A DNA stretch of 64,000 bases from Malurus cyaneus samueli (Eukaryota; Chordata; Aves; Passeriformes; Maluridae). The translations under genes and the position numbers were made by a program. Under the pieces are notes generated by a model. The model did not search any database and was not told the DNA's origin. It worked only from the letters and a program-made list of their open reading frames with translations. Location: contig CM019214.1 of the NCBI GenBank assembly GCA_009741485.1, positions 20,512,323 to 20,576,322 of the forward strand, in the 5' to 3' direction. Positions within the stretch are counted from its first letter, which is position 1; each line of letters opens with the position of its first letter. Positions 1 to 64,000 of this stretch are shown here, one piece after another.

Positions 1-6757
<6,757 letters not shown>

Positions 6758-6959
6758 TTATATAGGTTGCATAGAGCCACTTTTAAAATAAGCTGATGTA
6801 CTTTCAATACTGGTTTCAACAAAAAATTAATACAATCATTAAATGCTTAACATAATTAAGATGGTATATTAGAAATCACTATAATTTAGTAGTAATTATA
6901 CAGACACAGCTAGAATAGGAAAGAAATAAAAGAGAGGAAACCTCCTGAGAAAGCTAGAA

Positions 6960-7181
6960 AGCTTGAGGGAAATTTGGGAATATAAGGAAGAACTTCTTCA
7001 CTGTGCATGCATTGGAACAGATTGCCCAGAGAAGTTGTGGAGTCTCCCTTCACTGGAGATATTCAAGAACTGTCTGGATGCAAATCTGTGCTCTGGGATG
7101 ACCCTTCTTGCACCGGGAGATTGGATCAAATGATCCACTGTGGTCCCTTCCAACTTGTCCCATTCTGTGATTCTGTGAAAA
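6960..7181 (+). mobile_element. CR1 LINE fragment with relic of the reverse transcriptase C-terminus
   Basis: The plus strand reads as the 3' end of CR1: ataaggaagaacttctt, then a segment translating to HWNRLPREVVESP, and a tail ending cattctgtgattctgtga. It is antisense to SHROOM2 and starts about 240 bp from exon 2 on the intron 1 side. The coding relic is interrupted and not functional. Confidence 0.88.
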
Positions 7182-7879
7182 GCATCTATGGTCTTGACCT
7201 CAGTTCAATACTGAATGTGTAATCATACTTGCAAATAAAGCTTTGGACAGCTATCTTAAAATACCTAGAGAAGACGGCCAGTAATATTAACCATTTTGTC
7301 AATAACGTTAACACACAGCCAACTCCCAAAAATCTGGCGTGCAATGAAATCCCAAAACGTTGCTTAACAGGCTGGTCTAGAAAACAGAAGTATTTTCATC
7401 AGGAACATAACATTAAGGAAAATACCTGAGAATTTACCATCCATGCAGCTAATTAACAGCTCTAGCTTAAAAACACAAGGGAAATTCACTGGAAGATTAT
7501 TTTGCTGCCAAGGCATCTCTTGAATGCATTAAATTTCTATACAATTATTCAATACCTGTGTCAAAACCACATTATTAATGTAAGTGTCAGGCTTTTACAA
7601 TTACCATGCCAGTAAGTCCAAAAACCCCACGTTAAAAGTTACTCACTTTCAGAATTTGAAACAAATCTCAGAAGTTTGATCAGACAGATTAACCAGCACC
7701 AACAGTTTAAACTGATTTCAAGTCATGATTACAAGGATGTTATGAGGTTATGCAAGGGGAAAATTAGAAGGCCCAAAGCCCAGCTAGAACTTAATCTGGC
7801 TACTGCTGTAAAAGACAATAAAAATATTTTCATAAATACATGAGCAAGCAAAGAAAGTAGGGCTAAGGAAAATCTTTAT

Positions 7880-8022
7880 CCTTCACTGGATGTTTGGGAC
7901 TATCCTTTTAAAAGAGGGGCCTTTAGGGACACAGTTTAATGGTGGACTGGGTGGGGCTAGGTTAACAACTGGATTCTATGATCTTAAAGCTAATTTCCAA
8001 ATGAAACAATTCTATGATTCTA
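7880..8022 (+). mobile_element. CR1 LINE 3' end, old copy
   Basis: A diverged CR1 3' end, recognisable by gattctatgatcttaaag...aacaattctatgattcta. The terminal octamer repeat type ATTCTATGATTCTA marks the 3' terminus. It is short and 5'-truncated, on the plus strand, about 0.7 kb from the preceding fragment in the same orientation. The two could be one broken element, but both contain a 3' end, so two insertions are more likely. Confidence 0.8.
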
Positions 8023-9292
8023 AGTATAGCTGTAGGTATTGAACACTTTGCAATTCAATCCTTTAGCTTTCTAGTTTCTTCCTATCTCCTTTGCTGTCAA
8101 CACAGCCTCTGGCTTCTCAGTTGCTTGGATTCATGATCTATGCATTTAATTTTATTCCTCCCTCACTTGCTCATAATCCATATCCCACATCTTCCTGTAC
8201 ATTTGACACTCTGTCTTCAAAGCAAAGACTTTCATTTATGTCTTCATTACAGTATCACTGACCCACATTATTAAATGCCAGCAAATTTACAAAGAGTAAT
8301 TCCTTGTAATCACCCCCATGGCAGAAAGTTTCATAAAGAACTGTCATCTTCTGAGGCACCAAAGTCAATCAGCAATGAGATAAAACCAGAGGAAAGTAAC
8401 TTCATGAACTCTGAAGCTCACAGTACTGGTTTTAGAAAGTCCAGCAACAAAAATATAAATTAAATAACCTAATAAAAAAAGCAATATCTCTTGATGAAAG
8501 TAGTTTAGGATGATCTCATAGAGCACTCAATCTCATTGCAGGCACATAAAGCTCTCTTTATGCAAGTTTATGATAGATGTTCTTAAAAATCTTCAGGCCT
8601 GTAAACCTAAGCCAAATAGAATACCATGAAAAATGCTTAGTCTTCTATCCCATTCTAAAACACTCATTATTAATACTAATCAAGAAACTTAACTTCCAGA
8701 ACTTCTTATCTTAAAAAAAACCCAGGTAATTAAAGACAGAGCAAGTTTCTACATCCCCATACATCTAGTTTTCAAGTTATGATCTGTCCTCTGACCTGTT
8801 CATATTTTCTCTAAGCATCAAGAATTTACCAGAATACCAAAATATCACTGCAAATCCTCAGTAAGGTTGCAAACAAGGGGATGGCAGGGGAAATTGCTTA
8901 TAAGTAAGTAAAGATTTCAGTTCAGAGATGTCAAGTATAGGGTGACTGCCGTATAAGGGACACTGAAATCAGGCTGAGCAGAACAAGAGAACAGGCAGCC
9001 TGAGACTTGAATCTGAATCCCAAGAAGGTTAGAAAAGTGGCACAAAAACGTTAAGGAAAGTCAGAGTTAAATCAGTAGAATTGCAGGGGGAAGGTGGCGG
9101 CAGGGGAGATGGGACAGGGCACACATAGCAGGGGGCAGAGAGGGAAAGTATCTTGGAGGAGACACTTGAAATTCCAAATGTAGATGTCAACCATTTGCAG
9201 CCCTTATGCCCGAAGCAAGGCACCCAAACATAACAAGTCTGAGATGCCCCTGGGCCCCAAAACACCGCAACAGGATCCTTTTTTGTCTGTAT

Positions 9293-9337
9293 AAAACAAC
9301 AACAACAAAAAAAAAAGCTGGGGGGGGGGGGTGTGTG
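9293..9337. repeat. (AAC)n / A10 / G12 / (GT)n compound simple repeat
   Basis: Several aac units, a run of ten A, gct, then twelve G (9320-9331) and a short gtgtgt. The G12 run is long for a vertebrate genome and prone to length error. Confidence 0.85.
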
Positions 9338-10192
9338 GAATCTGTCTCCTAGGGTTTGAAGGAATGTTCATTGTTCTCAGTAAGCATGTTTGTTTTTTCT
9401 TCAGGCTGGCAATGCACTGACAGCAGGGAGTATTCAGTTACCCCCTCTGAGTTTTAATTTCATCTGGGAAACTACACATTCCACACAAAGCCAGCTTTCC
9501 AAGGAGGAGACTCTGGCTATCCAAAACAACATTAATCAAAAAACCTCAACAAGTATTTAAAAAATCAAAATCTAAGCACAAAACTGAAGCCATCCTCGTG
9601 AAAATTTCGTGTGGCCATAAGATCTTGTCTTCAGATCACCTGCAGGCAGGAAGAATAAAAACTACACATCCATTCACAGTAGAAGTCTTTTCAAGCTGAA
9701 TAAATTTAAACATAAACCTTTCATACTCAGATCCCCAAATGGTGGTACAGATATGACTCCACTTGACAATACACTTTCAAGTGGAAATGGGAAAGTCAGA
9801 CAGGAAAAATCCAATTTCTTCTTTTACATTAGAAGTCCTTCCTTTAGTCATAACAACTAAACACACTAGGCTTTGCACACATATAAAGAAACACAGCCAA
9901 AAATATCCATGAGGATAAATATAGCAAATACACTGCTATATTAACCAGCTTTCTTTGTGCAAAATTGGACAAAGCCATTCCAGCTTCTACTCCAGGTTTT
10001 CTCTTCTTCTGTTTACTAGTTTTAATATTTATTGTCCTTATTTGTTCATCCATTGATTAACTTTCCATCTCATCAGGCATTAACTAGAAGTGTAAATTCC
10101 AACCAAAATACATGAACATTTCAGAATAGCAAATACACTCAAAAATGTCATTACTTGTCACACATCAATCACGAATACATTTCACTATCTTC

Positions 10193-50530: not shown

Positions 50531-52745
50531 CGCTTATACCCTTGGTAAGGCTGGACATATTTTCTGCTTTTTAGCATGCCTTTCCTTCTCTCTGATTATT
50601 GGCAATTTGGTGGATCAAAGGATATTCTTGTTTTAATTGACTTGATTTCCAGCTAAAAAATTCCCAAATAGTATTTGTCCTAGACTGTCCCTACATTACC
50701 CATAATAAAAAATTTCCCCTCCTGTCAGCAAGTGAAATAGTGACACAAGTGAAAAACTGAGAGGTATATTACACAGAAAGTGCTGCAAAGTTAACAACAC
50801 ACAGCTGCTTGTGAATTTTTCAATTATGGTATTTTTTGGTGCTACTTCTCTGGCAGCTGTGCCAGATATGCTAAGGAAAGCAGGAAATATTTACAAACAC
50901 AGACTTTCTAGCATTTACATAAAGATGCAACTTTCTTCAAAGGCTGATCTTTTTGAGACTATGGAAACAGAGACAGGCAGAATTTTAGAAATCCCCCTTA
51001 AGCAGCTGCTATCTGAGACTCCATTCACACCTTGTCACATTCCTCTCAGAGTTGGCAGTTGTCGTCATCCACCCTCAGAGATGCTCCCACTTCCCCAGAG
51101 ATGCTCTGGGCTACAGTGAGATGGAGCTTCATAGCTAGCTAATGCTTAAGCACAGTTTGAATCCACAAACCCCGGAGTTTTTCCACAGATCCTGAAGGAT
51201 TTAGCCCACTGTGTTTTCTTGGGTTGCCCACTGACGAGCCACCAGTCTACCTGCGAAGGAAGGACACACACCACGAGGAGAGAAGTGCAAGTGAAATGGC
51301 ATCTCTTCATCCATGGCAGCCCAGTGATCCCCACTCAGGAACAGGGTCACTCAAGTTCACGGCTCTCTTCAGCTGAGAAGAGACAAACTTTAAATCTCCT
51401 CTAAAGAGGGACTCTTGTAACCACTTGGTATTAAATTATTCTTCCCAGTAGCTTTCCACCACTAGAAGCAGTACAGTAAAAAACCAAAGCACCATGCTGG
51501 GTGGACCAAATCAACATAGAAAATTTTTCAGCTAAAGAATTGTTGTCCTGGGCACACAAGTTCCAATCACTTGTTTCAAAACTAGCACTATATCATTGTA
51601 TCAAACAGTGGCTACTGAAAATACACTCCAAAATTTAAATCCAAGGATTCACGTTCTCTCTTATTCCTAGGACTGCACAGATGGACCCAGATTTCTCTTC
51701 CACACAGCAGGGCAGCTGTGGTTCTATTTAATTATTCCCTTGCAGCAGACCCAGTTTAAAAGGTTCCCAGGCACAGCCACTTCTCTCCACATACCACAGC
51801 CACATCCTCATGCCACAAATACTTAGGCCTGTTACTTAATACCTAGGTAACATTATGAATAAGTATCACTGATCAGTCTTTAGATGTAGCACTTACTAAC
51901 CATTACCAGAAAAGTGGAATTATTTGAATTGGCACTTAATAGCTAGAACATACACAGTAAAATATCTCTTTTCTCCTTTCCTCAAATGCTCCCGGGTTTG
52001 CTATTCTGTAATTCAGGACACCGGTAAGCGGCCAACAGACTTGCAGTCATTTTTCAGCATATACATTTGACACTGACTGTTGTTTCTTGAAAAACAGCAC
52101 TAAGGAAGTGATCTAGAAACAGATGGTTTGAAACTCCTAACTTGGAAAGTTCATAACACAGTTGTTTCAAGGGTAGAAGAGAACCAACTAGAAAACTCAC
52201 AACAAAACCAGCTGAAAAATAAGATTAGAACAATTTCTGCTGTGGATGAAACAGGATTTCTTGACCTCTGACACTCTGGCACTTTCAAAATGGGAACAGG
52301 CAGAGTCCAGAAGACTTGCAGACAAAAACATATATATAACTTTCTGACAGATCTTGAGCAAAAAGTGCTTTGCTAATGTGATTTTTTTTTTCACTACAAC
52401 ATATGGATTTATTTTAATGTGTTTTCACTGTGTAACATGAAAGCTGTCTTGACTGCAAAACCCAACAATTACAGAGAATGGGGGCTCTTAAGTCAAAACA
52501 CATCCAGATGAAAAACATTTTTGAGAAAACGTGATGCATTTCTTTAACTCATGTCCAATACACTGAGATTAAAGCTATGAGTACACAAGGACTAAAAAAA
52601 AAAAAAAAAAAAACCGAAAGAGAAAAAAAAAGGCAACCAGAATGTGCATATATACCCAAGCACGCCCCCCTCCCCCCGTCTTCAGTGCATGAATTTGGTC
52701 ACTATCCACAAGACCTTTTTGTTTAAGGAAGAAGGGACAAACAAA
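50531..52745. other. SHROOM2: Intron 1, promoter-proximal segment
   Basis: AT-rich intron between the last CR1 fragment and the CpG island. There is a 7-bp inverted repeat CCCAGAG/CTCTGGG with a three-base loop near 51094-51110, and an A-rich tract near the island. No exon seen. Confidence 0.6.
52593..52632. repeat. A20 homopolymer and adjoining A-rich tract
   Basis: About twenty A, then ccgaaagag and a further nine A, immediately before the AT-to-GC transition into the CpG island. Confidence 0.8.
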
Positions 52746-53234
52746 AGGCTACCCTAATTACTCAGAATTTGCAAGTGCAACGGCAGCGGAGAAAACTCAG
52801 CCCCGGAGCCGGGAGTTTCAGTCTCCATAGCCTCCTGCGCCAGGAGCCGGGAGCGAAAAGAGGGAGGGAACAGCCCAGCACAGGGTTTCGTGTCCCCAGC
52901 CACTTACCAGCGCCCACAACGACAACGCCGGCTTTTTACTGGGGCGCACTAGCGGCCAGAAGCGACACCTCAGAGCCGCCAGGCTGCCTGCACCCAGCAA
53001 CCTGTTGCCCCCAGAGCTGCTGGGATGAGCCCCGCACCCTCCGGTACCGCTCTCCGGGCGGCCCTGGAGCACCGCCGGAGAGAGCCGGCCCGGCGACACC
53101 TGCGCGGGGCGCGCTGCCCCGCGGTACCTGCGCCCCGGGCTGCGGGCAGGCGGTGCGGCCAGGCTGTCACCGCCGCGGGCACGGCAAAATGGAGCCGACC
53201 GGACCCACCTCCCCCCAGCTCCAGCGCCTCTCAC

Positions 53235-53446
53235 CTTGGTGATGATGAGGGCTCCCCGTGCTCCCGTCCGCCCTCAGGTGAAGCCCCAGGAGCCGCCGGT
53301 CAGCTGCACCTCCACCAGCTTGTAGCCCTCAGCTGCCCGCTGCTCCCACCATCACCATCACGGGCCCCGGTTCCACCAGCCCGGCGCCGAGCCGCGAGTC
53401 GCCGACGGCCAGCCGCTCCGCACGCCCCCAGCCCCAGGTCCTCCAT
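53235..53446 (-). CDS. SHROOM2: SHROOM2 exon 1: start codon, N-terminus and first PDZ strands, with several frame breaks
   Basis: On the minus strand an ATG in good context (CTCCATGG, 53444-53446) begins MEDLGLG. After that the family sequence is spread over different frames: ERLAVGDSRLGAGLVEPG, then EQRAAEGYKLVEVQLTGG, then WGFT, then a basic/acidic stretch matching GGREHGEP, then IITK. The exon ends in AAG followed by a consensus donor, gtgaga (53229-53234). Human SHROOM2 has the same order here (ERLA, RAA, LVEVQL, GG-PWGFTLKGG, EPL-ITK), and WGF is the carboxylate-binding loop of the PDZ domain. The frame jumps sit at about 53425-53429 and 53345-53347 (one surplus base in a G run on the coding strand), 53289-53291 (one codon short), 53274-53278 (two bases short) and 53249-53251 (one base short). 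The length, 212 nt, is not a multiple of three although the exon should start and end in phase 0; the listed breaks account for this exactly. It is most likely a functional exon with sequence errors. A truly decayed exon replaced by another first exon is the alternative. Confidence 0.8.
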
Positions 53447-54110
53447 GGAGCGCCCGCCGCCGCCGGGGCTGGCTCGCCTCTGCCGGCCGCTCCCGGTGCC
53501 GCCAGCCGGCGGCCGCCCGCGAGCCACCTACCCGCCCCGCGCGCCGGCCGGCCCGGCCCCATCGGCGCCGAGAGAGGGCTGTTCCGCCCGCCCCTCCTCC
53601 TCCTCCCCGCAGCCCGCGGTATTGTCTCACGCCGAGGCCGGAGCCCGGCGTGGGGGGGCGGCTCCAACTTGTGGCAACTTGGCGGCGGGGCAAACACCTC
53701 CGAGCAACGGAGCGCTGGGAGGAGCGCAGCCGGGAGAGGCGCCTCCGCCTCCTCTTCGCCTCGAAAAGAGGGCGAAAACCGTGTTCCACCAGCGGGGCAG
53801 CCGCTCGCCCCTCCCAGAAAGCGGCAGCCCCGCAGCGCGATCCCGCGGCCGAGGAGGAGGGGAGGGGAGGGGACCAGCCCTGGGCCGGCCGCCAGACAAA
53901 GGCTGCGGCGAGAACGTCCGGGAGCCCCGAGTCACCCCGGGGCCGTGCCCCTGTCGCCCCCGCCCCACCACACGCAGGGGTGGCCGCGCCTCCCCTCCAC
54001 CCCCGTTCCCGAACAAAAGCGGCGAGCAGGTGGAGGGCGGGGTGAAAGGGCAGCCGGCGGCTGTGGCGGTCCCTGGCCAGGGACGCCCCGCCTTCGCCGC
54101 GCCAGGCGGC

Positions 54111-54140
54111 GGGGGGCCGGGGTGGGGAGCGCAGGGAGGG
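54111..54140 (+). promoter_or_regulatory. G-quadruplex motif in the CpG island
   Basis: Five G runs (6, 4, 4, 3 and 3) are separated by loops of 2, 1, 6 and 1 bases on the plus strand. This satisfies the usual rule of four runs of at least three G with loops of up to seven. It lies about 0.7 kb upstream of the exon 1 ATG, on the strand opposite to SHROOM2. Folding and any effect on transcription are inferred. Confidence 0.6.
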
Positions 54141-54372
54141 CTGGCTCTTCCCGTCTGGCCGCGGTGTTCGGGGAGGGGGAAGCCGGGCAATGCGGAGGGC
54201 AGGTCAGGGGGCAGCCGCGGTGGGAGCCGGGGGAAGGAGGGAAAGGAGACGCTTTCCGCCGGGCTATCCCTGGGCACCATCCGGCCCGCCCTGCCTCCAG
54301 CACCTGTGGGGCGGGAGGGGCTCACGGGCTCCGGGCCGCGCTCTCCCGCCCGGCGCCCCTCACGGCAGCACA

Positions 54373-54400
54373 GCCCGGCCCGGCCCGGCCTGGCCTGGCC
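54373..54400. repeat. 5-bp tandem repeat (CCCGG/CCTGG)n
   Basis: About five consecutive copies of a pentamer, three of the CCCGG type followed by two with C to T changes (CCTGG). The changes are those expected from deamination of methylated CpG. It lies at the upstream edge of the CpG island. Confidence 0.75.
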
Positions 54401-55020
54401 CTCAGAGCCGGAACGCACCGGACGGGCTGGGTACCAAACCGGTGCGAAACCCTCAGCGAAAAAACGCATTAGGGAAGAGATTTGGAGTCCCAGATTGTCA
54501 AAGAAGTTTGATGGCAGAGTGCGAGGCGGGACTAGAAGTGCTAATCTGAAGGCAAATCTCAGGGTTGGGAAATAAATGCAGGGTTTGGGTTTCCCTGATA
54601 CCTTCAATGAGTGTAGTGGTGAAGCTGGGAGTAACATACTTATTTTTTACAATTCTCTCAGTTTAATTGAATCACTTCACAGGAGGTTTTAGTTTCGTAA
54701 ATCAGGACCAGGCTTGGCCTGGAGTACTAGTATGCCAGTACACAGCCCTCGGTGGCACTACTCAGCAGGCAAAATACTGCTTGATCTAAGACATAGGGAA
54801 ATTTCTATTTCAGTTTCTGAAAAACTAGTGAACCTCAAGTACTTTTTCATGTGACAAGCTCATGTCTCGTGGAGGTGCCTGCTATCTGCAATGGGATTTT
54901 AAGGTTTTGTATATTGCTTTCTGAAAGTGACTATTAGGCCATTCTGATAATGTAATCTGATCCTCCAACTCCTGCTTCGGTTGTTTTATTTCTCATAAAG
55001 TTCTCCTACCTTGAGCTGCA

Positions 55021-55022
<2 letters not shown>

Positions 55023-55057
<35 letters not shown>
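55023..55057. repeat. T35 homopolymer
   Basis: Thirty-five consecutive T on the plus strand with no interruption, the longest homopolymer in the window. Flanks (gagctgcacc to the left, ctcaagtattcc to the right) show no target-site duplication or polyadenylation signal that I can see. Confidence 0.9.
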
Positions 55058-57242
55058 CTCAAGTATTCCAGAGTTAGCTACAGGATGTTTCATCAATACC
55101 TAAAGAAAACTTTGGGTTCAGGATTGAGAACATCTGAGTTATCAATCCCAGCAGCTGATTGGAGGTCATCTAGAAACAAGAAAAATATGTGATTAGGATG
55201 ATTGTTGTTCCGCTGTAATTAAGGGACAGAAGGAACAGTGGAGTCGGTACTCAAACTTACATATCCGTCTGTGAGAATCCTGCAAAATACAAACCTAGGT
55301 ATTGCATCAAGTTATTTAAGACTCTAATGACCTGCAGATCCTCATTTTGATTTATTCTGTAATGATTTTCTATCATATAGGCAAGCAGATTTTTGTCTTT
55401 TTATAGTTTTCTCCATGTCCTGTTTCCAGTTCATGAAATCTGAGACAAAGTCTTGAGTTATGTTAGTGTAAAATGTATCTCAGGTTGTCTTCAGAGCAAT
55501 GTATACTCAGTAACATATAGCTGAAAATTTTAAGAAGCTGCCTTATGGATTTGCTTTCTTTAAGTATGATAATGAAAGGAAGAGCCAGAATAATGATTTA
55601 AACTTTAGCGTATCCGCAAGTATGCCCTTTAAAATGAAAAGAAAATAGCTTACATCACTAATGAGAAGAGTAAATTCTTCTTCCAAAAATGCCTTCTCTG
55701 TTTATATTCCTCCTTTTTCAACTGCCAAGCATTTATTTTTTATCTTGAACACTTTGTTGTCAATAAGAAATTCAAGATTTACATTACTGTTCTGGCTTTT
55801 AGGATTTGTCTTAAAAATTCAGTATTTAAGCATGATGAATAAACCTGAGCTCAGATTTTAAAACTTGAAAATCTAGAGCCAGAAACTGGCAGCCATTGAA
55901 AACATTGAACTTTGCTACAGTAATTACATCGGTGGAAGATGTGGATGGGTAGCTCTTGAGAAAGCAATTGTCTAAAGAAGGAATATCTGAAAGCTTTCAC
56001 ACTCACTCTTAACTGGGCTTAAGAGAGACTCAGTAAAGAAGTTTCTAGCTAATGCTTGCTTAGAGCCTGGTAGTCTGACACAGTCGTCAAGCAGATCCTC
56101 AGCTTGTGGTTAATAGTTCAGCAGACTACCTTTTTTATGCCTTTTATTCTTTGCTGTTATCAATAAGGGACCACAAAGTAAAGTTCTTCATACATATGTT
56201 TGACAAGTCAAAGCAATAAAGGAATTATTTTTTTTGTCATATTGGTCAAATTTCTCTCATTTTTTTTATATCCCCTCTCTCTGTGGAATCTGAAGCTTGT
56301 TCAGAACTCAGCTGGAGACTTGTACTTGTGCTCTTCTTAAAATATTGTGATAATTTTATTATTTGAATTTCTGCAGCTTCTGACAGCCTTCATAAGGTTT
56401 CAAATAATGATAAAGAACAAAGGATTTGATGAATGGGTTTTAAAATATTACTTTTCATTTGTTTGATAAGAGAGCCAATGGTAATTGTATTTGTCTAACA
56501 AAAGCCTTGGTGACCAAATCCTCAGCTTTCTCCCTTGTCAAATGTCAGAAGTTACCAATAGAAGGTAGAAATGTAAGATACATCAGGGTGCCATAAATAT
56601 ATCAAAGAAGTAACAGACTTTTTCACACTGTGGACAGAGAATGATGCCGCTATCACCAACGCGGTATGAAAGGGATCACTGTGTGAAAAAATATGCGCCC
56701 AAGATACATGTATCCAAGATACCTCACAGTGATACACAAAAGTTGCCCAAATAACTTCTCCTGCTGTGCAGAAGGAACTATCAGACATGTTAAAGATGGT
56801 TCCCACGTATCCACATTGTGTGTCCCCGCTCTGTGAAACAAAAGCCTTCAGCAGTAAACCAGGCTCCTCCCACAGTACTTCATCTGTCATCCTACCTTGG
56901 TACTTGAAGCTTAATTAACAATTTCAAGTGAAATTTTGTTCTACAGAATTTATTCCACCTCCATTCTTTCTGTTGCACATATTGCATATCTGTTCCCTAT
57001 TTAGTCATTGAGATTACAAAAACTGTGAATAAATTACTTTAAGGCAGGATTTTATTTGAACAGTATGATATTAAGGCACAGCCTCTTTCACCTTTGTGGC
57101 TATACACCACATATCTTTTCCTTAAGGCACCACACCTTGCAGTGAATTGCACAGGATGCCTTCGGGATGGCTCTAGAATAGACTGATTTTCTCTCAGTCC
57201 TGAGGCCATTCATTGTGTTGGACATTGCAGTGTCAGCAGGGC

Positions 57243-57263
57243 TTTTTTTTTATTTTTTTTTCC
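57243..57263. repeat. T-rich tract
   Basis: Two T runs separated by a single A, followed by CCC. A similar T15 run lies at about 59349-59363. Both are upstream of SHROOM2. Confidence 0.7.
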
Positions 57264-57540
57264 CTTAGAAACTGAGGAATCTGCGATGTGGAGGTTCCTG
57301 ACTTCTAGTTCCAGAGTAAAGAACTGAGGTGAGGTAAGCCTTTACAACCCCCCACTTTGTTACCAGCCCTTCCAGGAGCTAAGCACCAAACATCAATAGG
57401 TTGGTTAAGAGACAAAGTGCCTCTGCCTCAGCCATATGAAATTCAAGGTTGATTCCCTGGAGCATGCATAGTTCATTGACAATTTCATTTCAGACAGTAA
57501 AAAAAGAGCAGCTGATCCAAGGCACATATTCTGAGGAAAA

Positions 57541-57815
57541 TACAGGATCACAGAAGGGTTGAAAGGGACCTTAAAAGAGCATTTAATCCAAAGTCTTGTG
57601 GGCAGGGACATTTTTCACTGGATCAGGTTACTTAAAGCCCCATCTAACCAAGCCTTGAATACTTCCAAAGTTGGGGCATCCACAGCTTCTCTGGGCAACC
57701 TGTTCCAGTGTCTCACCACCCTCACTGTAAATAATTTCTTTGTAATGTCTACTACATCTTCCTTGCCCTTGTCCCTTCTGAACAGCTTACAGCCACTGAT
57801 GGCAGCCCTCCAGTC
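57541..57815 (-). mobile_element. CR1 LINE fragment with relic of the reverse transcriptase C-terminus
   Basis: On the minus strand it reads through the CR1 ORF2 C-terminal motif HWNRLPREAVDAP followed by LEVFKAWLDGALSNLI, then the 3' tail ending at 57541. The relic frame of about 68 codons is open (57615-57821) but heavily 5'-truncated, so it cannot be an active element. It is the only CR1 found on the upstream side of the SHROOM2 promoter. The next 100 bp, to about 57915 (with cttccagctccttcctg), may belong to an adjoining repeat that I cannot name. Confidence 0.9.
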
Positions 57816-60800
57816 ATGCAATTCATACCACCAAGTTTCAGTAATAGTGATTAGACTGTAGCTTTATATTTGCACAGTGGCTTCCAGCTCCTTCCTGTTT
57901 CCAGCTCTAACCTCTTTGAAAATTATCATCACAAAGACCAAAACAACTGAAATAGTGATAAGAAGTTCCTGCAAAAGAAGTGGATGGATTTTTTGATCAA
58001 GTAGTTCAAGGTTTGGCAAGGTGCTTGCAGTCTATTGTGGAGTCTGAAAGTCCTGAGAACCTGGAGAAACAGGTTGGGTAGCAGCCCAATAGACAGACAT
58101 CCTGGCATATCTAAGAACCAAGAGGCTTTCCTTTGGAAACCTGCCATGATCCTTCTGATGGATTCAGCATAATCATGCTCCTGCAAAGCACTTTGATTCT
58201 AACAAATTACCCATTTTCCCAGAATGAAAAATACCATGTTGTAAAGCTGCATCAGGGTGTCTATGATTTAGGCACCTTAAAAACCTTTCCCAAGTGTGTC
58301 TTGTTTCTCCTGTATTGCAAGTAGGGCTTCATCATCACATAACTAGTGCTGGAGAAAGCCTTAGAAGTTCTCAACATTTCAGATATACATAACTCAAATA
58401 CATGTTGAACTCTTCATTTCTTTATAATCAAATTAAAATCTGTTTTCTTTAGAACTTTTTATAAAGTTGAAATTTGTGAAAGATGACACAAATGACATTG
58501 ATATTTCTGTCTCCCATGCTGATTTTGACTCAAACTTCATTGAATTCTCACTTATTTTCACAGCACATGTGCTTTGTACCTCAGAGCAATTTTCTGAGGG
58601 TGACAGCATGCTCTGTGGAGCAAACTGAGGCTGTGAATGACCAAGAGAAAAAATTACGATGATTTGCTAAGATTAATATTCTTGACTCAGATCTTGAGGC
58701 CTATTAGACCCGTAAACAAGAAAAAGGAGATGAGTCCAACACAGACTCCTATAATCCATAGCCTGCTTTAGGATTTATAATTTTCATTATGATGCGTGAT
58801 AAAAAGATTGAAAACCAAAGCAAAGGGCAATAGCAACTCCTCATTCGGTTGCAGAGTCTGAAGACAGCACACACCTAGCAAGAGGAGGTGAATAGTAACC
58901 AGTTTTCCCTGGAGAAGTAGTTTTCAGCCTGTAGTCAAGTTCAGGCACATGTTAAGTCCTGCCTTGGGCCATAGTCCCTCTGGTAACTGTATATCTGTTC
59001 CTTTTCAGGTTCCTACATTAGGGCCCTTTATCAAATTATAGTACAACATCTCAGACTACCGCTTTACAGAGAAACCAGATAGCAGAGTGAGAGCACAGAG
59101 GTTGAAACACCAGTACATGACAGTCCATACTGTTTCATTGTCAGCAGACTGACTAGGCAGCATTTGGACACAGTTTGGGGGATAATATGGGCCAGTGACC
59201 ATAACTATAAGGCACTGTGGATGAAGCCACTTTTTTTTAGTTGTGAAAGAGACCCCAGCAGTATATGCACATATGCATACACACACCATATACACTGTAT
59301 AGCTGTATTTATCATATGTATGTGCATTGCAGCTTCATTAACTAGGGATTTTTTTTTTTTTTTGCTTCATGAAGTTTCGTTGTTTCAGTGAAGTATCATT
59401 TGTAATATTTATGTTTTGCTGCCAAGTTTTCTTATCGTGGTACACTAGGGATTCATTGTCCATTTTCTAATACAAGTTACAGGATAGCATTCTCTGTACA
59501 AACTGTGCTGTGCTGTACTCTTATGTGTGATGAAACACTGACTCATTTTAAATACATGAGGGATAGTCTCAGAGGCTAATGAGTGTATTTAATGCATTTA
59601 AACTCTGATATCATAGCATATCTGAATTATGTACTTGATGAAGATGGTCACTGGAGCCAGAATGGTTAGGGAAAATGCAAAAGGTGGGCTTCAAATGTTC
59701 TTTGTGCAGAGAATGCTGTGAAGGCTTTTAAAAGGAAAGATAAATAGCAAGAGGCCAGAGTATGCATGACAGCAAACAAAAGTCTTGTGTTGTAACCTGC
59801 TATTTTTCACTTGGACTTTGTCTTCATTTGCTAGCTAGCCCCAAACAGACCTGTTTCTGCCTATCAGCCACGTATAAATAAATCTCTCATTGCTTTCTAT
59901 AAACAGACACAGTTTCTGCATTACAACTGACCTTTCTGCTCTGATCTGGGTTACACAGAACATGAACCATGTCCAGGTGAAGGTCATAGGATGTAGAACC
60001 TTGTGAGGGACCATGCATGAGGCATGAAGTACATGTTCTTTTCTTATTGCAGTGCCATAGGAGTTTGCCCTACAGCATCGGGTGTGCTCTCGAGGCTGTG
60101 GTCCAGCAGTGGCAGATGCCGGATATTGCATGAATGTGGTAATATTAGGGCTGATATAAGGCTGGTTTGGGCATGCCCAGGAGTCCAGGGGGCAGAAGTT
60201 CTTGCTGTGCACCTTCCTACAGACTGCTATGCCCCTTTATGTATTGGTGTGGCCTCCTGTCAGTTCTGCTAACCGAACAGTTAGATAGGATATTTGAGAG
60301 AATCCTTCTGAGTCATATGCATGAGAAAAAGTGCAACATCCAGATTAGCTTTCTCTGGCTTGTACTTGACTTTATAAGGACGAGGCTGTGGAAGGTACTG
60401 CTTCCTTAGCCTGGATTTTGTGTAAAGCATACTCATGCCTGTGGAGCATCCTTAATAAAATCCTGAGGAAACAGCTTTGGCATGGGGGGTTATTGCCTAT
60501 CTTCTGTGTTAACACAGATCCTGTCACAACCCTGAACGTTAATTTCTTTTGAAGGTCTGAATTTGTGGGGTATTAAAGGTACACAGAGGATTACTTTCAG
60601 AGCACTGCTTTTGTGAAGCAGTTTGAAAACCAACCAATTTCTTGGAGTTATGCTCTCAGGAAGTAGACTGTAGTAGGAGCAGATGATGTAGCCAAGCTGT
60701 AATATAAATGTATAGTATAGCCATATTGCTCACCTGGAGGATATATCCAGTAAACTACACTGGATCCTCATAACTTTTCCACTCTGGACTGCTAAGTCCA

Positions 60801-63800
60801 CCTCTGACAATGAAGTCATGATCTTTAATACTGAAGAGCAGAAAAGTCAAAAGAGTGGATCACAGTTCCTTTCTGCACTATAATGTTTCTGCTCTTATTA
60901 CTGTGTTTCCTCTGGATTCCCTGAGCCAGCTAAGCTATGTTTTTTAGCTATCTGCTCATTTGAGAGACTACAAGACAACAATTTGTGGAATAGAAGGTTG
61001 CAACTTTCCCTCATCCATTCCCAAGGTGCTGTAGGGGTGACTGCTGGCCGTGCAACCACTGCACAGTTAAAATAAACCTTGTGATGCTCATGGGATTTCA
61101 AATGGGAACATTGACTGGTGTCTGTGGTCTGGACCTGACTACATTTTGTCAGAATTCCCTTCAATTACACTTGTTTACAGCATCCAACGAGACTAATTGG
61201 CCAGGATACACTGACATTTTTAGCAATTTAGTTAATAGAGCCTTGGAGAGTTCTTGTGATGTAAGAGCACTGAAGTTTGTGCTGAAATGTATTTTGATTA
61301 GGCTACATAGACCTGTCTGAGAACACAGGTTTTATAAGTTTAAATGCTAATGGGCTTTGAAAATACAACTACTGGGTGGTGGGAGATGTAACCTAACAAG
61401 ATCCCACCATCTAGCAGCTGTAACGAGCATATAAGAGTGTCCTACCTGATTTCTCATGATTTCTCCTGAGGGGACCAACTAATGTTGGTTAGATTTAGGA
61501 TGCAGAAGTCCAGGGCCTAGGATTCCTTTGGAAGACACTGGGGACAGGATAGACATTCAACTTCTTCAGGTCAGGGTATGTACCTACAAGCATTACTATC
61601 CAATTTTCAGTATCACAATGTGTGAGAGATAATATTCTTCTTTTACCAGTATTTTTCATCAATCAGTTCCTATTCAGGCTGTGTCTCATGTAGTCAGTGT
61701 AAGTGTGGGACAAGGTGTCTTTATTACATGTGTGCTCAAACTGAGGTATCTTGTTGTTCAGTGAAATAATATGACAATGACTAAGGGTGGAATTTTTCTG
61801 GAAATCTGGCTGTCCACAAAAATCTGTCTTAATGCAAATTCGAAGACTAATATTCTCAACATCGGTATGGAGAATAGGTGCTTTTTTTTCTTCTAATCTC
61901 TAAGCAAAAATAATTTTCTTCAGTTTTATGGATATGTTTTTCTACTCAGTTATTTTGTACTTCATCTGTATAAATTTTGTTTATTAATTTAAATGCATTA
62001 CAGGCAGTATTTCAAAAACTAGTTTGTGTATTTTTCTTCACAAAAGCCACATAAGATAACTTTTCCCTGGAGAAGGTATATAGTAAGTCAATAAAATATG
62101 AGTAACTTGATTGCATCAGTTAAATCCTCACCGATACTAAAGAGTTCAAATGCACACTCATTTCATGTATTTATGTTTTTATTCTTCAAAAAAACAATAA
62201 CTCAAATATTATTATTTTTATGCAAATGAGATACATTAATCCTCAGCCTTTTAAATTAATATTCATCATCCTTAAAAGTAAATTAACATTTTAAAATTTT
62301 ATAATGATATTTAAAACACTGAGGGAAGGGACCAATAACTCTATTTTTCTTTCAGTACTTTTTAATGCAGTCCATAGCTGTTATAAGCATGACAGACATT
62401 ACACCTTGAATATCACAATTGTTCCAATATCCTTAATTTTACAGAAAACTAGAAATAACAAAAATGGAGTGTAAATTTCTCCATTCATTTCAGTTATGCA
62501 TTAAGTTAAAGGTTTTAAATTAACTTTTAAAACTAGTACTGCTAATTATGGGATGGACATGTCTAAGGGCTTCTTCCAAATTAAATCTAATTGCAGAAGG
62601 TCTGGGTAGATAAAATAAAGAATAGTGTTAAAGCATATGGAAGATTTGTATGTCAAGGCCTCAAGAAACATATTGCAGGATCTATTGGGGAGGTCATAAC
62701 TGCATTCATTGAGCTTGAAGACAGACCTAGCTTTCTTCAGTTTGGAAAATGTTAGGTCAGGTAACGTGTGAAGGCTAAGAGGTCATGAACAGTGACAAAG
62801 TATAGCTTTCACACTTGTGAGGTAGCTAAGATCTTCATTGGGACCTGAAAATTCAGGCAGTGATGTGTTGAACTGTACACATAAACAAAACCAAACTATT
62901 TTCTGTCTCTATGTCCACAAATTTGTCCTTTGTAACCCAGTACTGTAGTCCTAGACTTAATTAAAACAGTGATTAAAGTATGTGCAGCTGCACACTCAAG
63001 CATAAGCCATACACACTCTCCTTCACAACAGAAATGCATGCCTGTCATATTTTTGTAAACCTGTTGCTTTCCCTTAGAGGCAGGCAAGCCAGTGTTTCAT
63101 CTTAATGATGGCACAGACTGGGAAGAAACATCATGTCTGGGTCCAAGAAGAGAGTGAGTAGGGATTTCTAGAAGTATAGAGTACATGCCTGGTTTCAAAG
63201 GAGCACAGCATTGTTCTCATCTTTGAGTACACTGTTGCCAGTGTCCAAAATCGTGATTGGAATTTTCAGTGTTTGCCATGTTGTACTTACTCTGTGAGTG
63301 TGATTGATTGGTATTTGCAATGCCAGGAGCTGTTTTTTAGTTCTTCTTGCATGTGTGTTAATGGTTGTCTCCAAGCTACACCATTTGCTTAGTTGAGATC
63401 CTGCGCTGGTGCAGAAATGAGACGCAGCATATTTGTGAATCTTTCTTGTACACTGACAGAAAGTGGGAATTGTGTCAATAATTTCAGAGAGAAGGGAATT
63501 AGGACCTGTAGAAAGATCTATGTTTTATAGAATGCTAAATAAATGTCCTTAACAAGACAAAACAACTATTCTCTTATTTCTTTCACTACTTTCCTGTTTC
63601 CTTTGTCTTTGTCCCCAGCTTTTATCCTCTTATTTTCATAATCACAAGAAGCCAAATTAGTCTCAAGTGTAAGACTGCCAAACCAGCTTTGAATTTCTTT
63701 GACTGTTCTAACTCTTTATACTTTGAGCCCTGCAATGAGAACCAGAGAGAGCTCATACCAGCTGAGGTGTTGGTGGCTCATTAGTTTGGTAGATGTGTCT

Positions 63801-64000
63801 CCCACTCAGCCTCAAATATTGGCACATTTCAGACACCTCTACTTCCATCATGGTAAGTATCCGTTCATTTACAGGTAAATTTTCTTTTTTTGTATTAGGT
63901 ATGCTACAGGTCCTGTGCTTTGCTTCCAATAAAAACCACGTACTCCCTCTTCAAGTAATGGTGCAATCAAATCCTGAGAGTTTACAGGAGGGAAGGAACC

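What the first reader, a model, noticed from the sequence alone, without database searches (positions are those of the whole stretch)
53235..53446. SHROOM2 exon 1 is recognisable but carries about five frame breaks in 212 bp
Family motifs ERLA, RAAEGYKLVEVQL, WGFT and IITK appear in the right order in different frames. Breaks sit in short G, C or A runs (about 53425-53429, 53345-53347, 53274-53278, 53249-53251), plus a missing codon at 53289-53291. Removing the surplus and adding the missing bases returns the length to a multiple of three, as the intact splice phase demands. This pattern, confined to GC-rich sequence, suggests base-calling or assembly error; if the sequence is real, the PDZ N-terminus is lost in this lineage. 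An automatic gene model built on this sequence would be wrong either way.
Basis: partly seen in the sequence, partly recalled or inferred. Interest (0 to 1): 0.75.

Follow-up and report, generated by a model that had tools for sequence, protein, structure and literature searches.

The report
Assembly indels in SHROOM2 exon 1
The first coding exon of a songbird's SHROOM2 gene is cut up by five small length errors that are most likely mistakes of DNA sequencing in a GC-rich stretch, not a real loss of the gene's front end.

Summary
Window 53446..53235 (minus) is SHROOM2 exon 1 of a songbird-like genome: 212 bp from ATG to an intact GT donor, needing four frame switches plus one lost codon. Seventeen bird readings (five named species, twelve unnamed records judged avian; 13 distinct sequences) each run in one frame; nine have 73 codons (219 bp). 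The window matches Gouldian finch at 63 of 69 codons; away from the breaks one residue is absent from all 17. Exon 2, with the rest of the PDZ domain, is intact at 6724..6573. So the protein is conserved while the exon's frame-shift density is like that of the noncoding flanks. Residual consensus indel error in GC-rich DNA, in print for birds (PMC9516821, PMC8081667; passages), fits best. The statistics are not decisive: P about 0.0002 with the great-tit indel ratio, 0.01-0.05 with the local ratio, up to 0.37 with the least favourable counts. No reads, cDNA or own-genome search were available. Ordinary artefact, low interest.

The parts
53235..53446 (-). SHROOM2 coding exon 1 (ATG at 53446, donor GT at 53234-53233), first part of the PDZ domain, with five length breaks
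53422..53429 (-). break 1, two bases short relative to 73-codon birds, frame 0 to frame 1
   Evidence: placed at 53428 against 5 readings, 53422 against 8, unresolved against 4
53345..53347 (-). break 2, one base over, frame 1 to frame 2
   Evidence: 53346 against 17 of 17 readings
53288..53291 (-). break 3, one codon short beside the WGFT segment, frame kept
   Evidence: 17 of 17; GGAPWGFT is present in 26 of 26 homologues fetched
53274..53278 (-). break 4, two bases short, with an in-frame TGA at 53276 right after WGFT
   Evidence: (17 of 17)
53247..53251 (-). break 5, one base short, frame 0 to frame 2
   Evidence: 17 of 17
6573..6724 (-). SHROOM2 exon 2, no frame break, second part of the PDZ domain; AG acceptor and GT donor present
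   Evidence: tblastn with P0012: 96% over 52 aligned residues, E 2.6e-28; sequence and splice sites; Pfam PDZ profile 33-80
52801..54520 (.). GC-rich island around exon 1 (span between the first and last 200-bp windows with GC of 65% or more in 52000-55500)
   Evidence: for the 1-kb profile

Best explanation
This is an ordinary, most likely functional SHROOM2 exon 1 of a songbird, misread in the assembly. In the GC-rich island (exon GC 72%) the consensus kept small length errors, mostly missing bases, that later correction did not remove, for example because short reads cover such DNA poorly. The true exon then encodes the start of the PDZ domain and joins exon 2 at 6724. Shown: the breaks, the conserved protein between them, the unbroken exon 2 and splice sites, intact copies in other birds. 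Inferred: that the breaks are errors, and the sequencing route by which they arose.
For: Intact single-frame copies in 17 of 17 bird readings (13 distinct sequences) and in 26 of 26 homologues fetched, out of 120 listed and 474 found. Window vs Gouldian finch: 63 of 69 codons identical; of the 6 differences 4 lie within three codons of a break, one (V4L) is shared with thrush, one (P18S) is in none of the 17. Away from breaks the exon differs from P0010 at 3 of 65 codons while the intron on the same P0010 record differs at 14 of 84 (one-sided Fisher P 0.018; 7 of 69, P 0.18, if the codons near breaks are kept). Frame-shift density in the exon (4 in 212 bp) is no lower than in the 5' flank (19 in 954 bp) or intron (2 or 4 in 296 bp), whereas in great tit frame-shifting indel diversity is 52-63 times lower in coding DNA than in ancestral repeats (PMC6543879, passages). 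With the great-tit ratio of 10,259,689 SNPs to 1,162,517 indels, 5 indels with at most 1 amino-acid change has P 0.00021, at most 3 P 0.0015, at most 5 P 0.0055. Exon 2 and a 63-bp intronic match at 42840-42778 carry no frame break. [quoted passage not shown] short indels causing amino-acid frameshifts named as the commonest error before polishing of long-read contigs (PMC8081667, passages).
Against: No reads, cDNA or second assembly were seen. With the local indel: amino-acid-change ratio of the same island, P rises to 0.01-0.05 for at most 1-2 changes with 5 indels, 0.03-0.10 with 4 indels, and 0.14-0.35 if all five residues absent from other birds are counted; with assumed ratios of 4 and 2 SNPs per indel and 5 indels, P is 0.005-0.08 and 0.04-0.37. 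The local ratio may itself be inflated by errors. Exon against flanks, indels against mismatches, is not significant (P 0.29-0.47 in nine of nine Fisher tests). The unbroken stretches outside the island are short (0 in 215 bp, P 0.06). Proteins in the database are predicted ORFs and so under-report broken relatives.
Confidence: 0.88

Rival explanations
1. True decay: this lineage has really lost SHROOM2 exon 1, so that any SHROOM2 made lacks the first part of its PDZ domain, perhaps by use of another promoter or first exon.
For: The breaks are in the sequence as given. With the island's own indel ratio the small number of amino-acid changes is only mildly improbable (P 0.01-0.05, or 0.14-0.35 with the least favourable counts). 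Noncoding parts of the island have a similar indel density.
Against: Residues between the breaks are conserved as in other songbirds; exon 2, which holds the other part of the same PDZ domain, is 96% identical to Gouldian finch with intact splice sites; start codon and donor site are intact; none of the 17 bird readings shares a break.
Confidence: 0.07
2. The window carries a merged sequence of two haplotypes: some breaks are real indels on one haplotype or arise from the merging, while an intact haplotype exists.
For: Haplotype merging is a described source of indels in an early long-read bird assembly (PMC5632298, passages). One of the five breaks (three bases) keeps the frame and could be a real variant; whole-codon length differences do occur among bird readings (65, 66, 71 and 73 codons).
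Against: The lost codon lies in GGAPWGFT, kept in 26 of 26 homologues fetched. Nothing in the window tests for haplotypes.
Confidence: 0.04
3. A processed or duplicated pseudogene copy rather than the gene itself.
For: Frame breaks are typical of pseudogenes (general knowledge).
Against: Exon 1 is followed by a donor site, intron sequence that also follows exon 1 in P0010 and P0011, and exon 2 46.5 kb away on the same strand; the 5' flank matches a related record (P0121); tblastn showed no second copy of exon 1 in the window. A fragment that follows exon 1 in the Turdus model matches the window's intron.
Confidence: 0.01

Closest known systems
Zebra finch PCDH17 first coding exon (Kim et al. 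2022, PMC9516821; passages seen)
   Same: False length errors in a GC-rich 5' coding exon of a bird assembly; the gene model bridged them with false introns of 1-2 bp.
   Different: There it was shown by comparison with a newer assembly of the same species, and the errors were insertions; here four of five breaks are missing bases and no second assembly or reads were available.
SHROOM2 exon 1 of Chloebia gouldiae (P0012) and Turdus rufiventris (P0001, TURU_091529)
   Same: 63 of 69 and 61 of 69 aligned codons identical, same start and same end at IITK.
   Different: Those run in one frame through 73 codons; the window has five breaks and is 7 bp shorter.
PDZ domain of Shroom family member 4 (PDB 2edp)
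   Same: Matches the end of the exon reading (E 0.00052, query 41-72).
   Different: Paralogue, and unbroken.

Membership tests
SHROOM2 exon 1 | Sequence closest to proteins named Shroom2, over the whole exon | tested here: met
   full query coverage by named Shroom2 proteins P0013 and P0019; the one PDB hit below E 0.001 is the paralogue SHROOM4
SHROOM2 exon 1 | Start codon, GT donor, and a following SHROOM2 exon 2 on the same strand in the matching phase | tested here: met
   P0018 shows the same junction ITK|IEDGSK
SHROOM2 exon 1 | One open frame from ATG to donor | tested here: not met
   Stops in all three frames; so the exon as printed is broken, and that it works in the bird is inference
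PDZ domain (PF00595) | Pfam score above gathering cut-off | tested here: met
   Exon 2 alone 28.8 bits against 23.2, profile 33-80; exon 1 pieces joined by X plus exon 2 43.4 bits, profile 4-80 (the second figure rests on my joining of frames). Inside a long frame translation exon 2 scored 20.5, below the cut-off
Consensus indel error in GC-rich DNA | Frame breaks without matching loss of protein conservation | tested here: met
   strength depends on ratio and counts (P 0.0001 to 0.37 over all tried)
Consensus indel error in GC-rich DNA | Breaks concentrated in homopolymer runs | tested here: inconclusive
   P 0.04 (4 of 5) or 0.20 (3 of 5)
Consensus indel error in GC-rich DNA | Reads contradict the consensus | not testable with these tools
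   No reads held; the own-genome search did not complete

The most novel reading that the evidence does not exclude
The breaks are real and recent: a songbird lineage has lost the PDZ start of SHROOM2, with exon 2 and the rest kept for now and made from another start, a case of PDZ-less SHROOM2 in birds.
Probability: 0.06. Interest if true: 0.45.

Novelty: not a real feature. Interest (0 to 1): 0.12.

Why it matters
It matters for annotation only: an automatic model on this sequence would drop exon 1 or bridge it with false tiny introns, and a scan for lost genes could count SHROOM2 or its PDZ domain as lost in this bird. It is one more example of a known trap in GC-rich first exons of birds. 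If the breaks were real, it would be a natural test of what the PDZ domain of SHROOM2 is needed for.

Tried and rejected
Pfam was run on ten of the twenty ORFs of at least 120 aa (the ten outside the island, nothing), on all six frames of 54600-64000 and on the three minus frames of 1-9401. The only hits were the PDZ piece of exon 2 and one sub-threshold hit (TX13_rpt, E 0.056, 14.1 bits, cut-off 40.3). The frames of 9402-54599, and the plus frames of 1-9401, were not scanned, so I cannot say that no other exon exists there. No further coding exon was found that could serve as an internal control of error rate. Rfam (gathering threshold) and tRNA scans were empty. A PDB search with a 22-residue piece found nothing.

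I tried the noncoding flanks as a control. A Fisher test of indels against amino-acid mismatches, exon against flanks, was not significant (P 0.29-0.47 in nine comparisons), because the flanks are also rich in indels; this weakens the statistical case. The flank records are translations of other species (P0010, P0011, P0121), so natural divergence and error cannot be told apart there. The 5' flank stretch compared (53437-54390) includes the first 10 bases of the exon.

I used the last protein search to look for a relative sharing the breaks, with a frame that runs from the 5' flank into the exon only past break 1. The single hit, P0121, matches the flank and ends within the first bases of the exon, so it says nothing about the breaks.

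Processed-pseudogene and second-copy readings were rejected because intron and exon 2 follow and no second copy was found in the window.

Full report
What is there. Minus strand 53446..53235 begins with ATG, ends at ITK followed by GTGAG, and is 212 bp long. Read in three frames it gives MEDLGL, then ERLAVGD to VMVMV, then EQRAAEGYKLVEVQLTGGSWGFT and a stop, then GGREHGEP, then LIITK. The exon lies in a GC-rich island (about 52801-54520; exon 1 GC 72%, exon 2 48%).

Identity. A protein query made of these pieces joined by X found 9 proteins; 7 cover the whole query, P0008 61% and P0009 49%. The best is TURU_091529 of Turdus rufiventris (E 2.2e-24, 80% identity). A profile search gave 474 proteins with E up to 0.001, of which 120 were listed; named ones include Chloebia gouldiae, Limosa lapponica (protein shroom2 isoform x1), Columba guinea, Grus japonensis (protein Shroom2) and turtles. 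I fetched 26 of the 120 (9, 17). I treated 17 of the 26 as birds: five are named bird species, and twelve are unnamed records whose sequence groups with them. The other nine (P0005-P0009, P0020-P0022, P0027; turtle, snake, mammal-like or unplaced) were left out of the bird counts. All 26 run through GGAPWGFT to IITK in one frame. The 17 bird readings hold 13 distinct exon sequences by my count of the alignment (P0001 = P0011; P0015 = P0016 = P0018; P0023 = P0024). Nine have 73 codons, four 71, one 66 and three 65, so they differ by whole codons only.

The breaks. Frame-aware alignment gives 53346 (+1), 53288/53289 (-3), 53276 (-2) and 53247/53248 (-1) against 17 of 17 readings. The first break (-2) falls at 53428 against 5, at 53422 against 8, and is spread over several events against the 4 readings with a shorter exon. 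Net -7 bases, 212 against 219. Scores are far above shuffles: P0001 278 against a best of 27 in 60; the lowest-scoring of 7 references, the mammal-like P0009, 33 against a best of -17.

Conservation between the breaks. Against P0012 63 of 69 codons are identical. Five residues of the window occur in none of the 17 birds: codons 9, 10, 53 and 60, which lie within three codons of a break, and P18S. So away from breaks one residue is private. This is what a working orthologue looks like.

Exon 2 and the PDZ domain. tblastn with P0012 finds exon 2 at 6727-6572 with 96% identity over 52 aligned residues. It has a TTTTTTTTCCAG acceptor, a GTAAGC donor and no frame break. Pfam PDZ matches exon 2 alone at profile 33-80 (28.8 bits, cut-off 23.2), and exon 1 pieces plus exon 2 at profile 4-80 (43.4 bits); within a long frame translation exon 2 scored 20.5. 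Exon 1 carries the WGFT segment, by general knowledge of PDZ domains the peptide-binding loop (recalled, not tested). Intron 1 is 46,510 bp.

Error or decay. In decay, indels and amino-acid changes accumulate together. Great tit has 10,259,689 SNPs and 1,162,517 short indels (PMC6543879, passages), ratio 8.8. Taking three quarters of substitutions as amino-acid changing (my assumption), 5 indels with at most 1 change has P 0.00021, at most 3 P 0.0015, at most 5 P 0.0055; 6 indels with at most 2 has P 0.00011. With an assumed ratio of 4 the three figures for 5 indels are 0.0046, 0.027 and 0.078; with a ratio of 2 they are 0.041, 0.17 and 0.37. The island itself is richer in indels: against P0121 the 5' flank shows 25 indel events and 50 mismatches in 290 codons; the intron shows 6 and 14 (84 codons) against P0010, and 7 and 17 (81 codons) against P0011. 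With these local ratios P is 0.01-0.05 for at most 1-2 changes with 5 indels, 0.03-0.10 with 4 indels, and 0.14-0.35 if all five private residues are counted. A Fisher test of indels against mismatches, exon against flanks, is not significant (P 0.29-0.47, nine tests). On the other hand the exon is more conserved in protein than the intron of the same P0010 record (3 of 65 against 14 of 84, P 0.018; 7 of 69, P 0.18, if codons near breaks are kept). It is also more conserved than the 5' flank against P0121 (2 of 65 against 50 of 290, P 0.0012; 6 of 69, P 0.052), though that compares different species pairs. Frame shifts in the exon against flank or intron do not differ (P 1.0, 0.24 and 0.72). 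The statistics favour error without settling it; the unbroken exon 2 and intact splice sites add independent support.

Literature. [quoted passage not shown] A bird-of-paradise long-read assembly had about 300,000 short indels corrected in one polishing round (PMC7757076, passages). A search for SHROOM2 with 'bird' found 41 papers; among the 15 listed none concerned loss of this exon by title or abstract start; no wider claim of absence is made.

Limits. The species is not known; L4 is shared with thrush and the rest with songbirds, so a passerine is likely (inference). The sequencing method is not known. The own-genome search did not complete in seven tries. Which base is wrong at each site cannot be known from one sequence.

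Noticed in passing
window 42840-42778, minus: Matches the tail EIVILTNIVAVTCYVK of the Turdus rufiventris model TURU_091529 (81% over 21 aa, E 2e-6), which follows exon 1 there; the Turdus model seems to have taken a piece of intron 1 as its second exon.
   Followed up: partly
P0020 (Platysternon megacephalum): A protein labelled dehydrogenase/reductase SDR family member 7C begins with SHROOM2 exon 1: probably a fused or mislabelled gene model.
   Followed up: no
window 52939-54390 apart from the exon: The noncoding parts of the CpG island also switch frame often against records of related birds (19 times in 954 bp of 5' flank), so indel errors, natural indels, or both run through the whole island.
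   Followed up: partly
bird SHROOM2 exon 1, codons 14-30: Bird readings differ by whole codons in the N-terminal segment before the PDZ domain (65, 66, 71 or 73 codons), a naturally length-variable stretch.
   Followed up: partly
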